From NCBI RefSeq assembly GCF_021172045.1, contig NZ_CP087164.1:2976001-3040000 (forward strand): a stretch of DNA of 64,000 nucleotides, given 5' to 3'. Position 1 is the stretch's first letter; every line of letters starts with the position of its first letter. A program made the translations under genes and the position numbers. This DNA comes from Capillimicrobium parvum. GTDB lineage: Bacteria; Actinomycetota; Thermoleophilia; Solirubrobacterales; Solirubrobacteraceae. Below the pieces are notes generated by a model. The model made no database searches and was not told the DNA's origin. It saw only the letters and a list, made by a program, of their open reading frames with translations. Positions 11,255-16,721 of the stretch are shown piece after piece.

Positions 11255-12253
11255 CTAGATGTCGGCGCTGACCGTTCGCAGGTCGACCGGAACGACGAGC
11301 ATCTGGCGCTCTCGACCGTCGCGGAGCAGCGACACCGACAGCCGCGTGCCGATGATCTCGTGCTGGAGGAGGGCCTGGAGGTCGGCGACGCTTTCCATGC
11401 GCCGGTGGCCCACGTCGATGATCAGGTCGCCCTCGCGGATGCCGGCGGCCGCCGCCGGTGAGCCGAGGACGACCTCAACGACCTCGATGCACCCCTCGCC
11501 ACTCCAGGCCGTTCGTGCGCGTGCCGGCAGCGGCCGGGCCGCGCCGGCGAGGCCGAGGTAGCCGCGGCGAACCTCGCCGTGCGTCATCAGGGCGCCGATG
11601 ATGCCCCGCGTGGCGGTGTTGATCGGCACCGCGAGGCCGAGCCCCACACCCGCGACCGCAGTGTTCACGCCGACCACGGTGCCGCGATGGTCGGCCAGCG
11701 CCCCGCCGGAGTTGCCGGGGTTGAGCGCGGCGTCGGTCTGGATCACGTCGTCGATGCGGCGGACCACGCCGCTCGAGCGTGTCGGCAGCGAGCGGCCGAG
11801 CGCGGAGACGACGCCCGCCGTCACCGAGCCCGCGAACCCGTGTGGGTTTCCGATCGCGACGACCAACTGCCCGGCGCGCAGCTTGGTGGCGTCGCCGAGC
11901 GCGGCCGGAGCGAGGTCGCCCTCGTCGCAGCGCAGCACGGCAAGATCGGTGAAGGGGTCGGCGCCGACGACGGAGAACCCCATCTCGCCGCCGTCGGTGA
12001 ACGCCGCCACGCCGCGCGATCGCGACGGTCGCGTGTGGCCGGAGACGACGTGCGCCGAGGTCAGCAGGAAGCCGTCGGCGGTCAGGACGATCCCGCTGCC
12101 CGCGCCTGCGGGAACCCGCCGGCCGTCGCGACGGCGCGCGAGGACCTGCAGGTTGGCGACCGACGGGGACAGCACGTCGGCGACGTGGATGACGCTCTCG
12201 CTGTAGGCGTCGAGTGCCTCGGCCTCCGACGGCACGTCCAGCCGGGCGCTCAT
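11255..12253 (-). CDS. HtrA-like trypsin-fold serine protease with PDZ domain
   Basis: A 332-residue protease. The catalytic triad is intact: His in LLTSAHVVSGH (about residue 67), Asp in PFTDLAVLR (about 104) and Ser in NPGNSGGALAD (about 181). A single PDZ domain fills about residues 235-325 (SPAAAAGIREGDLIIDVG). Unlike most actinobacterial HtrA proteins, it shows no signal peptide or membrane segment before the protease domain, so a cytoplasmic enzyme is likely. Its ATG overlaps the stop of an upstream paralogue whose active site is lost. Regulation probably comes from the divergent HxlR gene. Confidence 0.9.
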   Translation of the reverse strand: MSARLDVPSEAEALDAYSESVIHVADVLSPSVANLQVLARRRDGRRVPAGAGSGIVLTADGFLLTSAHVVSGHTRPSRSRGVAAFTDGGEMGFSVVGADPFTDLAVLRCDEGDLAPAALGDATKLRAGQLVVAIGNPHGFAGSVTAGVVSALGRSLPTRSSGVVRRIDDVIQTDAALNPGNSGGALADHRGTVVGVNTAVAGVGLGLAVPINTATRGIIGALMTHGEVRRGYLGLAGAARPLPARARTAWSGEGCIEVVEVVLGSPAAAAGIREGDLIIDVGHRRMESVADLQALLQHEIIGTRLSVSLLRDGRERQMLVVPVDLRTVSADI

Positions 12254-13110
12254 GCGCGCGCCTTCGCCGACAGGTCGACCTCGAGCCGATGCTCGTCGAC
12301 TCCGCGCACGACATGGAGCGCCACGGTCGTGCCCGCGACGCGCTGCAGCGTGTCGACGAGCGCGTCCGGGTGTTGCACCTCCTCGTTGCCCACAGCGACG
12401 ATGAGATCGCCGGCGAGCACCCCGCCGGCCTCCGCCGCGGAGCCTGCTTCGACGTCGCGCACCAGCACACCGGCGCGGTCCGGGAGGCCGACGGCGCGAC
12501 GCATGCGGCGGGCCGCTCGCGGCGGCGCCACCGCGACGCCGAGGCGCGCGACGTCCGGCTCGCCGCGCAGCAGGCGATCGCTGGCTGCGCGCGCGGACTC
12601 GGCCGCCAGCGCGATGAGGAACCCCGGGTCGCCGCGCAGCGCGTTGATCCCGATCAGCTCGCCCGCGGCGTTGACGAGGGGGCCGCCGCCGGCGCCGCGC
12701 GGCATCGGCGCGGTGTGCTCGATCGCGCTCACGAGCCGCCCGCCGCGTCCCCGCACCCGCAGGAGGTCTGCCGATACCCGCCCCTCGGTCACCCGCAGGC
12801 CGGTGCCGGGATCGCCGAGGGCGAAGACCGGATCGCCGAGGTTCGGCGTCACCGGCGACCAACGGAGCGCTTCGACGCCGCCGGTCTGCGTCTCCAGCAC
12901 GGACAGGCCCGATCCGAGGTCGCTCGCGAGGACCTTGCCCTCTTTCACGTCGCCGGCGACGTCGAGCTCCACGCGGTCACCGGCCAGCGTGTGGCTGAAG
13001 ACGAGCACGCGGTCGGAAGCCACGACCGTGCCGCAGCCCCGTCTCGCACCCCGGCCGAGCCGCACGACAGCGGGACCGACACGCTCCGCTACCGTCGTGA
13101 CTTGCAACAT
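12250..13110 (-). CDS. Catalytically dead HtrA-like protein with PDZ domain
   Basis: A 286-residue paralogue of the next gene, read from ATG at 13110. The trypsin-like fold is recognisable, but the active site is not: the Ser motif GNSGGP reads GAGGGP (in RGAGGGPLVNAAGEL), and the Asp segment reads SGLSVLE instead of TDLAVL; only a His (FSHTLAGD) remains. The C-terminal PDZ domain is well kept (GSAAEAGGVLAGDLIVAVG). No signal peptide is visible. It overlaps the active protease gene by 4 nt. A regulatory or scaffold partner that presents substrates is the simplest reading, though this is inference. The start codon lies inside a palindrome. Confidence 0.8.
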   Translation of the reverse strand: MLQVTTVAERVGPAVVRLGRGARRGCGTVVASDRVLVFSHTLAGDRVELDVAGDVKEGKVLASDLGSGLSVLETQTGGVEALRWSPVTPNLGDPVFALGDPGTGLRVTEGRVSADLLRVRGRGGRLVSAIEHTAPMPRGAGGGPLVNAAGELIGINALRGDPGFLIALAAESARAASDRLLRGEPDVARLGVAVAPPRAARRMRRAVGLPDRAGVLVRDVEAGSAAEAGGVLAGDLIVAVGNEEVQHPDALVDTLQRVAGTTVALHVVRGVDEHRLEVDLSAKARA

Positions 13111-13115
13111 GCAAG
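13101..13115. promoter_or_regulatory. Palindrome, likely HxlR operator
   Basis: CTTGCA-ACA-TGCAAG is a perfect 6-bp inverted repeat with a 3-bp spacer. It sits in the 24-bp gap and start-codon region between the divergent pseudo-protease (ATG ends at 13110) and HxlR (ATG at 13135) genes. HxlR-type winged-helix dimers commonly bind short palindromes containing TTGCAA-like sequence, so this site may control both genes. Confidence 0.6.
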
Positions 13116-13134
13116 TGAGTCTACCAACCGGCAT

Positions 13135-13566
13135 ATGCTTCGATCGGTGATCGACGACGCTCTGCTTTCCGGCCTCACCAACGCGACCAGCATCCTCGGC
13201 GACCGCTGGTCGCCCGCGATCATCGCCGCGCTGCTCGACGGCCCGCAGCGATACGGGGAGCTCAAGGACCGGCTCGGCATCGCGCCGAACATCCTCAGCG
13301 CTCGCCTGAAGGCACTTGAACAAGAGGGCCTCGTCGTGTCGACGCCCTACTCCGATCGACCCGTCCGCCTCTCGTACGCGCTCACCGCCGACGCCCGCGA
13401 GCTCGCCGACCTGCTGCGGCTCCTCGCCGCCTGGGGCGCTCACCGCACCGGTACGCCCGATGCGATCACCCACGCGCGCTGCGGCACGCCGCTCGAGGTG
13501 CGCTGGTGGTGCCCGACCTGCGCCGACACGGCGTCCCCGGGCGACGATGAGTCGATCAGGCTCTGA
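13135..13566 (+). CDS. HxlR-family transcriptional regulator
   Basis: A 143-residue winged-helix protein. The core LGDRWSPAIIAALLDGPQRY (about residues 20-39), then LKDRLGIAPNILSARLKALE and the wing LVVSTPYSDRPVRLSY, is textbook HxlR/MarR-like. The C-terminal tail has three cysteines (RCGTPLEVRWWCPTC), seen in many HxlR proteins and possibly redox- or metal-sensing. It is divergent from the HtrA-like pair with a shared palindrome in the short intergenic gap, so it probably represses itself and the pair. Confidence 0.9.
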   Translation: MLRSVIDDALLSGLTNATSILGDRWSPAIIAALLDGPQRYGELKDRLGIAPNILSARLKALEQEGLVVSTPYSDRPVRLSYALTADARELADLLRLLAAWGAHRTGTPDAITHARCGTPLEVRWWCPTCADTASPGDDESIRL

Positions 13567-13825: not shown

Positions 13826-15055
13826 TCAGCGATGCGTTGTGGCCAGAGCGTGCACCGCCGGCAGCAGCAGCGGTGAAGGGTCTTCGGCCCAGTTGATCGC
13901 CGACGCGATCGTCACGTGCTGGGCGGGCAGCCGGGCGACGTACGCGTTGTAGCCGGCGGCCGTGCCGAGATGGCCGATCATCTCGACGTTCCCGGGAAAG
14001 ATCCGTTGCTCGACTCCGAGGCCGTAGCCGACCTGGCCGCCGACGTCCGGGGCCGGGGCGAACGTGAGCATCTGGCGCAGGGTGTCGCGGTGGCGGAACA
14101 GCCGTCCTTTCAGCAGCGCATCAAGGAACCGGGTGAGGTCCTGAACGGTGGTGACGAGCGCGCCGCCGCCCGCGGCGCCGGCGATCGATGGATCAACGCG
14201 GGTCTGATCGACCGTTCTGCCGTCGAGCTCGCCGTAGGCGTGTGCGTGAGCACCCTTGATCGACGCGTTCCCGGGGGCGGGCAGCGTCGTGTGCCGCAGG
14301 CCCAGCGGTGTGATCACGCCCCGCGTGACCGCCTTGCGCCATGACCCGCCGGTGAGCCCTTCGATGATCAGGCTCAGAAGGTTGTACTCCGTGTTGCAGT
14401 ACTTGTAGTTGGTCCCGGGCGCGAACGCCGGCGGCTGGGCGGCCGCGAGATCGAGGAACTCCGAGACCGTCCAGACCTTCAACGGGTCGCGGGCGATCTG
14501 CTCGTCGATGGCTGGCAGATCCCATTCGGGGATGCCGCTGCGGTGGCTGAGCAGCATGCGCACCGTGACGTCGGGCGCGGTCGGGAAACGGCCGATGACG
14601 CTCGCGGGCAGCACGTCGGGCAGCTTCGCGTCGAGCGAGAGGCGGCCGCGCTCGGCGAGTTGCAGAACCGTGGCGGAGACGAACGGCTTGACGATGCTGC
14701 CGGCGCGGAACCGATCGTTCGGGCGCATGGGCACATCCGGCGCCACGCGACCGAGGCCGGCGACGCCTGTCCAGGCGCCGAGCTTCGCGCTCCGCACGTG
14801 CAGGATCGCTCCGGGGGCGTGGATGCTTGGATCGCGAAGCGCGTCGTGAAGCGCCCGCTGGAGCTGACGCGCGAGGGCAGGATCGAAGCGCGGGCCCGAA
14901 CTCGCCGCCACCAACGCGCGGTGTGCCGCAGCGCGCACGGGCGCACTGAGCCCGGCCGCGGCAAGGGCGCCGGCTGCACCCACCAACAGCGTCCGGCGGT
15001 TGAGGGAGCGGCTTGCGCCGCCGTCCACGACGGTGGCGGGTCCAAGGTCCGGCAT
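13826..15055 (-). CDS. Tat-exported beta-lactamase-fold serine hydrolase
   Basis: A 409-residue class C beta-lactamase/D-Ala-D-Ala carboxypeptidase-like enzyme. The N-terminus has a twin-arginine signal (NRRTLLVGAAGALAAAG, about residues 21-37). Catalytic motifs are SIVK (SxxK, about residue 120), YCN (YxN, about 220) and HLG (HxG, about 365). This family cleaves peptides or esters such as cell-wall stem peptides; the substrate is not identifiable. Its tail is convergent with the HxlR gene. A second member of the family is at 47888-49042 but with a Sec-type signal. Confidence 0.9.
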   Translation of the reverse strand: MPDLGPATVVDGGASRSLNRRTLLVGAAGALAAAGLSAPVRAAAHRALVAASSGPRFDPALARQLQRALHDALRDPSIHAPGAILHVRSAKLGAWTGVAGLGRVAPDVPMRPNDRFRAGSIVKPFVSATVLQLAERGRLSLDAKLPDVLPASVIGRFPTAPDVTVRMLLSHRSGIPEWDLPAIDEQIARDPLKVWTVSEFLDLAAAQPPAFAPGTNYKYCNTEYNLLSLIIEGLTGGSWRKAVTRGVITPLGLRHTTLPAPGNASIKGAHAHAYGELDGRTVDQTRVDPSIAGAAGGGALVTTVQDLTRFLDALLKGRLFRHRDTLRQMLTFAPAPDVGGQVGYGLGVEQRIFPGNVEMIGHLGTAAGYNAYVARLPAQHVTIASAINWAEDPSPLLLPAVHALATTHR

Positions 15056-15868: not shown

Positions 15869-16330
15869 TCATGCGGCAACCTGCTCACCGAGGAAGGCGG
15901 CGAGCCCGTCGAGCAGCAGGCCGGTGCCGTGCTCGCGCTCCGCCGGATCCTCGAGGTCGTCGAAGAACGCGCCGTGCTCGGTGAAGACGAGCCGCGTGCC
16001 GTCGCCGTCGGGCCGCACCTCGACGGTCGTCAGCGACACGGAGATGAGCCGCCCGTCGAGCAGGAGGTCGTAGGCGAAGACGATCCGCTCACCGTCGACG
16101 ATGTCGTGGTAACGGCTACGGAACTCGTGCAGCGTCCCGCGCGGATCCCGTCCCACGCTCACCTCGCTGCCGCCGACGCGGAAGTCGAGCTCCCAATGGG
16201 CGTCGGTCCAGCCATCGGGCACGCCGAACCAGCGCTGCTTGAGCTCCGGGTCCGCGAACGCGCGGAACGCCTGCGCCGGGGTCTGGCGGAACCGGCGCTC
16301 GATCGTGAAGTCGTGCTGGCGGATGCTCAT
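15869..16330 (-). CDS. AHSA1/SRPBCC-domain protein
   Basis: A 153-residue START-like helix-grip protein. FTIERRFRQTPAQAFRAFAD opens the domain and WFGVPDGW, FRVGG and FTEHGAFFDD follow in family order. Proteins of this kind bind small hydrophobic ligands and are very often co-transcribed with an ArsR regulator, as here, where its ATG overlaps the regulator stop by 4 nt. The ligand is unknown. It may act as a ligand-binding helper to the regulator or as a small detoxifying enzyme. Confidence 0.88.
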   Translation of the reverse strand: MSIRQHDFTIERRFRQTPAQAFRAFADPELKQRWFGVPDGWTDAHWELDFRVGGSEVSVGRDPRGTLHEFRSRYHDIVDGERIVFAYDLLLDGRLISVSLTTVEVRPDGDGTRLVFTEHGAFFDDLEDPAEREHGTGLLLDGLAAFLGEQVAA

Positions 16331-16680
16331 CGGCGGTCTCCTGGGTCGGCGGGAAAGGTGTCGTCGAGGACGTCGGAGAGGCGGTCGAAGTGCCTCTCCC
16401 AGATCGCACGGTGCTCGGCGATCCACTGCTCGAGCGTGCGCATCGGGCCGGGCTCGAGCCGGCACGTCCGGACGCGGCCGATCTTCTCCGAGCGCACGAG
16501 GCCGCTGCGCTGCAGCACGTCGAGGTGCTGCATCACGGACGGCAGCGACATGTCCAGCGGTGCGGCGAGCTCGCTCACGGACGCCGCGCCGCTCGACAGG
16601 CGGACGACCATCGCGCGGCGGCTCTCGTCGGCGAGCGCGTGGAACGCCCGGTCGAGCTGTGCTGCGTCGGCGGTCGGCAT
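16327..16680 (-). CDS. ArsR-family transcriptional regulator
   Basis: A 117-residue winged-helix repressor from the Met at 16680 (upstream Met codons at 16689 and 16701 are alternatives). The recognition part reads SVSELAAPLDMSLPSVMQHL, followed by VLQRSGLVRSEKIGRVRT. No CxC metal motif of arsenic- or cadmium-sensing members is present, so it belongs to the non-metal group that pairs with AHSA1 proteins. The palindrome at 16698-16721 directly upstream is probably its own operator. Confidence 0.88.
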   Translation of the reverse strand: MPTADAAQLDRAFHALADESRRAMVVRLSSGAASVSELAAPLDMSLPSVMQHLDVLQRSGLVRSEKIGRVRTCRLEPGPMRTLEQWIAEHRAIWERHFDRLSDVLDDTFPADPGDRR

Positions 16681-16697
16681 GAGCCGCATCGTAGCGC

Positions 16698-16721
16698 ACA
16701 CTTAGGCAACTGACTAAGTGT
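16698..16721. promoter_or_regulatory. Perfect palindrome, likely ArsR operator
   Basis: ACACTTAG and CTAAGTGT form a perfect 8-bp inverted repeat around an 8-bp spacer. It begins 18 nt upstream of the ArsR start codon. Spacing and position fit autorepression by the ArsR-type dimer encoded next to it. The remaining gap up to 16958 shows no supported gene. Confidence 0.65.

What the first reader, a model, noticed from the sequence alone, without database searches (positions are those of the whole stretch)
11255..13566. Cytoplasmic HtrA-like protease paired with a dead paralogue and HxlR switch
Two overlapping genes encode protease-PDZ proteins without signal or membrane parts. One has the full His-Asp-Ser triad; in the other Ser is replaced (GAGGGP) and the Asp site is lost. 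A pseudo-protease stably kept beside an active one suggests a heteromeric protease with a regulatory or substrate-binding subunit. The divergent HxlR gene shares a palindrome with them, hinting at redox or chemical stress control.
Basis: partly seen in the sequence, partly recalled or inferred. Interest (0 to 1): 0.6.

Follow-up and report, generated by a model that had tools for sequence, protein, structure and literature searches.

The report
HxlR-controlled HtrA pair with pseudoprotease partner
A soil-type actinobacterium carries a small self-regulated gene set for two protein-cutting enzymes, one of which has lost its cutting residues although the rest of it is preserved, and relatives show that this loss happened several times, which hints that the dead enzyme now serves as a helper.

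Summary
Gene A (11255-12253, -) is an HtrA-like protease with an intact His-Asp-Ser triad. Gene B (12250-13110, -) is an HtrA-like partner with Asp->Gly and Ser->Gly. HxlR starts at 13135, divergent, with a palindrome between.

In 69 loci (this one and relatives) where both genes could be read, HxlR is always divergent from B. The palindrome is a conserved 27-bp operator, TAGTnACTTGCAAnTTGCAAGTnACTA, in 67 of 68 loci; its core occurs once in the 5.95-Mb genome. A is an optional third gene.

B is not dead as a family: 57 full-length B proteins keep the triad. Eleven, including this one, lost different triad residues, at least four times by residue pattern, always with A next to B. Dead B proteins keep 87-98% of the other conserved positions but only 11 of 33 triad positions. 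That fits a pseudoenzyme under selection rather than decay.

A heteromeric A-B protease is plausible (MamO/MamE is the precedent) but untested. Redox control is not supported. Verdict: new variant of a known kind; the module itself seems undescribed.

The parts
11255..12253 (-). Gene A: HtrA-like serine protease (Trypsin_2 + one PDZ), intact triad H68/D103/S182, no N-terminal signal/TM
12250..13110 (-). Gene B: HtrA-like protein (Trypsin_2 + one PDZ), triad H-G-G, i.e. catalytically dead by sequence; 4-base overlap with A
13135..13566 (+). HxlR-family regulator, divergent from B; C-terminal HX2C...CPTC motif; GTG 13147 is an alternative start
13095..13121 (.). Conserved operator, 27 bp (consensus TAGTnACTTGCAAnTTGCAAGTnACTA; 17 of 20 scored positions here); 17-bp core ACTTGCATGTTGCAAGT unique in the genome
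13118..13123 (-). Possible -10 hexamer TAGACT for B-A, 7 nt before B's ATG, which would give a leaderless mRNA (inferred)
   Evidence: sequence; (TAnnnT at this offset in 12 of 67 loci, 0-2 at other offsets)

Best explanation
The locus is a compact, self-contained protease module. The HxlR regulator binds the single palindromic operator between the divergent genes and represses itself and the B-A operon until a signal releases it (inferred from the operator and the family). A is the catalytic HtrA-like protease, apparently cytoplasmic. B descends from an active HtrA-like protease that, in lineages without A, works alone under the same regulator. Where A joined the operon, B's own catalysis became dispensable and was lost several times, while its fold, its distinctive loop before the active site, its linker and its PDZ domain stayed under selection. 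The likely present role of B in the window is that of a non-catalytic partner that binds substrate or activates A by subunit contact, as MamO does for MamE. Shown: conservation of gene order and operator, repeated triad loss, retention of the other conserved positions. Inferred: repression, cytoplasmic site, physical A-B contact, activation.
For: HxlR|B divergent in all 69 loci where both could be read, over Actinomycetota and MAGs labelled Chloroflexota, Acidobacteriota and Dormibacterota. Operator in 67 of 68 loci, always with the same spacing; mean score 16.5 of 20, at most 14 in 1,380 shuffled regions. Only exact core match in 5.95 Mb. A triad intact in all 38 A proteins that can be read. 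B triad lost in 12 of 35 loci with linked A, 1 of 34 without (Fisher p = 0.0013, not corrected for phylogeny). Dead B retains 87-98% of 46 non-catalytic columns conserved in live B but 11 of 33 triad positions. AF2 gives a confident HtrA + PDZ fold for the dead B (pLDDT 92.3). B stop and A start overlap by 4 bases in most linked loci. Precedent: MamO/MamE (PMC4794232).
Against: No direct evidence of A-B contact. The constant partner of B is HxlR, not A, so B may act without A. The link between A presence and B death rests on few independent events: only 4 independent pairs on supported branches, too few for significance. In seven genomes A exists unlinked and, in Streptosporangiaceae, lacks this operator. 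The window's B has the longest end branch of its tree (1.83 against a median of 0.39), which also fits partial relaxation.
Confidence: 0.5

Rival explanations
1. B acts with HxlR rather than with A: a PDZ/protease-fold sensor or feedback partner that binds the regulator or an inducing peptide. Catalysis is needed in some lineages and not in others.
For: HxlR-B is the constant pair; A is optional or unlinked. The operator follows B, not A, in Streptosporangiaceae.
Against: Triad loss is found almost only where A is linked, which points to A taking over catalysis. I know of no HxlR regulator that works with a PDZ protein (memory).
Confidence: 0.2
2. B is a redundant copy in slow decay after A took over; the dead versions have no function.
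For: Dead B is more diverged than live B (median identity 51% against 62%), and its gap to A is slightly larger (p = 0.043). The window's B has a long branch, a shortened N-terminus and a start codon inside the operator.
Against: Eleven dead versions keep full open frames and 87-98% of conserved non-catalytic positions; E131, H132, R159, R201, R202 and R204 are kept in 11 of 11. HxlR of the same loci has diverged about as much, so the speed is not specific to B.
Confidence: 0.2
3. B in the window is still catalytic through other residues.
For: H40 is kept and the invariant E131-H132 pair precedes the active-site loop.
Against: Both the nucleophile and the Asp are Gly; E131-H132 are equally invariant in B proteins with a full triad, so they are not replacements.
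Confidence: 0.04
4. The missing triad residues are a sequencing or assembly error in the window.
For: None beyond the window being a single genome.
Against: Two separate codons differ without a frame break, and ten other full-length B proteins show similar losses in other assemblies.
Confidence: 0.02

Closest known systems
MamE/MamO of magnetotactic bacteria (PMC4794232)
   Same: Two HtrA-like proteins, one active and one with a degenerate triad; the paper reports that MamO activates MamE-dependent proteolysis and that triad loss after duplication happened three times.
   Different: MamE/MamO belong to a magnetosome gene island and MamO binds metal through a di-histidine motif. Here the proteins are short, without N-terminal signal/TM, under HxlR, in other phyla; A and B are two separate clades, not a recent duplicate.
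HtrA/DegP/DegQ/DegS/HhoA family (S1C)
   Same: Fold, domain order, triad motifs of A; sequence and structure matches.
   Different: One PDZ, no signal or anchor, no NCBIfam cut-off reached; B has an invariant E-H where A has Q-T before the active-site loop.
Chloroplast Deg5/Deg8
   Same: Two different HtrA-type proteins reported to work as one complex (papers listed; details from memory).
   Different: From memory, lumenal proteases of plants; no shared HxlR regulator.
HxlR regulators of the YodB/HypR/RrpB type
   Same: HxlR domain, divergent gene, palindromic operator.
   Different: No N-terminal cysteine; C-terminal HX2C...CPTC motif in 66 of 68.

Membership tests
HtrA (S1C) serine protease, gene A | Trypsin-like domain with His-Asp-Ser triad plus C-terminal PDZ | tested here: met
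HtrA (S1C) serine protease, gene A | Trimer or higher oligomer | not testable with these tools
   no complex prediction available
HtrA (S1C) serine protease, gene A | Signal peptide or membrane anchor (usual in bacterial HtrAs, not strictly defining) | tested here: not met
   no N-terminal hydrophobic segment (crude hydropathy only)
HtrA fold, gene B | Trypsin_2 and PDZ domains, HtrA fold | tested here: met
Active serine protease, gene B | Complete His-Asp-Ser triad | tested here: not met
   H-G-G
Pseudoenzyme under selection, gene B | Catalytic residues lost while other family-conserved residues are kept | tested here: met
MamE/MamO-type activating pair | Dead partner activates the live one | not testable with these tools
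   needs biochemistry
MamE/MamO-type activating pair | Magnetosome gene island | tested here: not met
   no neighbours conserved over the whole set beyond HxlR-B-A
HxlR family | HxlR domain | tested here: met
   PF01638 1.4e-19
Redox-sensing HxlR (YodB/HypR) | Conserved N-terminal sensing cysteine | tested here: not met
   0 of 68

The most novel reading that the evidence does not exclude
A widespread, undescribed HxlR-HtrA module of actinobacteria and allies, in which a solo cytoplasmic HtrA was turned several times into a non-catalytic allosteric subunit of a second protease that joined its operon.
Probability: 0.35. Interest if true: 0.65.

Novelty: new variant of a known kind. Interest (0 to 1): 0.5.

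Why it matters
It offers a natural series of the same operon with live B alone, live B with A, and dead B with A, all under one operator. That makes it possible to test how a protease becomes a regulatory subunit, for which MamO is the clearest bacterial precedent I found. It also gives an HxlR with a 27-bp operator and one apparent target, a clean system for finding its signal. The literature search found no paper on such a module, in an open-access library only.

Tried and rejected
The first operator pattern with a 3-base spacer was in the wrong register and was replaced after comparison of the loci. A conserved extra partner gene was sought: only lineage-specific neighbours appeared. Defence role: PADLOC gave no credible match (A only weak protease-domain hits, B none). 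Plasmid spread: no plasmid match for one B protein. Recent tandem duplication of A from B: rejected, they are two separate clades. General -10 box inside the operator: only 12 of 67 loci, so not claimed for the family. Phylogenetically independent pairs test: too few pairs.

Full report
What is there. The window lies in a single-contig genome of 5.95 Mb; named relatives with this locus are mostly Solirubrobacterales/Thermoleophilia MAGs. On the minus strand, B (12250-13110) is followed by A (11255-12253) with a 4-base overlap; HxlR (13135-13566) is divergent. Both A and B match Trypsin_2 and PDZ models, and their profiles match DegP/DegQ/HhoA chains in the PDB. AF2 models are confident (B 92.3, A 89.1 mean pLDDT), and Foldseek places B among HtrA structures.

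Conservation of the set. A protein search in 100 relatives found about 15 close homologues of B. Fetched contigs show HxlR, B and A in the same order and orientation in nearly all of them. A scan of public genomes gave 72 loci. HxlR lies divergent from B in all 69 loci (window and three further genomes included) where both could be read; the seven others have B at a contig end. A follows B in about half. B is patchy: 34 of 354 genomes of the class, 2 of 4 of the genus. So this is an accessory module. No other neighbour is conserved over the whole set, and one B protein searched against plasmids found no copy.

The operator. The intergenic regions share TAGTnACTTGCAAnTTGCAAGTnACTA, always with the same spacing. 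It scores 14 or more of 20 in 67 of 68 loci, the window included (17); L103 scores 13. Of 1,380 shuffled regions none exceeds 14. In the window the site is 13095-13121. Its 17-base core has one exact match in the genome; sites with two mismatches are fewer than in the reversed-pattern control, so they look like chance. This points to a local regulator. In the window B's ATG (13110) lies inside the operator, 7 nt after a possible -10 TAGACT, which suggests a leaderless message (inference).

Is B dead? In the window yes, by sequence. In the family usually not: 57 full-length B proteins have H-D-S, and 11 others do not, with the patterns HGG, HGA, HGS, RDG, RGG, RGS, PGA and HDA. No residue is lost in all of them: L060 and L087 keep Asp but lose His and Ser, L120 loses only Asp, L070 and L118 lose only Ser. 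Hence at least four separate inactivations by my count; a simple live/dead label needs at least three changes on the tree. L124 and L115 have broken frames and were left out of the tree.

Where is B dead? With linked A, 12 of 35 (L124 included); without, 1 of 34 (the frame-broken L115); p = 0.0013. This is not corrected for descent, and an independent-pairs test has too few pairs. Seven genomes without linked A have a close A relative elsewhere, with live B. One of these, Solirubrobacter pratensis, has an operator-like site (15 of 20) next to its unlinked A; the Streptosporangiaceae copies do not. A itself is H-D-S in all 38 readable copies. A and B are separate clades, perhaps sisters, distinct from other HtrAs.

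Is dead B kept? Of 46 non-catalytic columns conserved in at least 95% of live B proteins, dead B proteins keep 87-98% each; triad positions are kept in 11 of 33 cells. E131, H132, R106, R120, R159, R201, R202, R204 and the V-G-L after them are present in all 11. Dead B is moderately more diverged than live B, but so is HxlR of the same loci. This is what a protein with a non-catalytic job looks like. Decay is not fully excluded for the window's copy, which has the longest branch.

How it may work. HxlR holds the operator; on a signal, B and A are made together. HtrA activity depends on contacts between subunits (general knowledge of DegS/DegP), so a dead partner can still activate or feed a live one. 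MamO does this for MamE (PMC4794232). I take that as the best reading; the contact itself is not shown. The rival that B serves HxlR rather than A deserves weight because HxlR-B is the constant pair.

The signal. HxlR proteins here lack an N-terminal cysteine; 66 of 68 have the C-terminal HX2C...CPTC motif. RrpB-type redox models match only far below cut-off. So redox control is open, not supported.

Known or new. The parts are known families; the HtrA pseudoprotease idea has the MamO precedent. The HxlR-B(-A) module with repeated triad loss was not found in the papers searched. I file it as a new variant of a known kind.

Noticed in passing
L142:1100-1400, L143:1-145, L144:3918-4218, L145:5295-5595: Unlinked A genes of Streptosporangiaceae share an upstream direct repeat, about TGTAATnnTGTAAT, so they appear to be under another regulator.
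   Followed up: no
L141:6505-6531: The unlinked A gene of Candidatus Solirubrobacter pratensis has an operator-like site (15 of 20) right before its start.
   Followed up: partly
L055, L057, L059, L062, L065, L067, L072, L073, L102, L111, L122 downstream of A: In one Solirubrobacterales group the module sits just upstream of what reads as nusG and neighbouring ribosomal protein genes (recognised by eye).
   Followed up: no
L080, L097: These two dead-B loci have HxlR proteins without the C-terminal HX2C...CPTC motif.
   Followed up: no
window 15869-16701: ArsR-type regulator overlapping a START/AHSA1-like gene, a common autoregulated pair (by eye).
   Followed up: no
window 13826-15055: Serine beta-lactamase-like hydrolase with a twin-arginine-looking N-terminus next to HxlR (by eye); not conserved with the module.
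   Followed up: no
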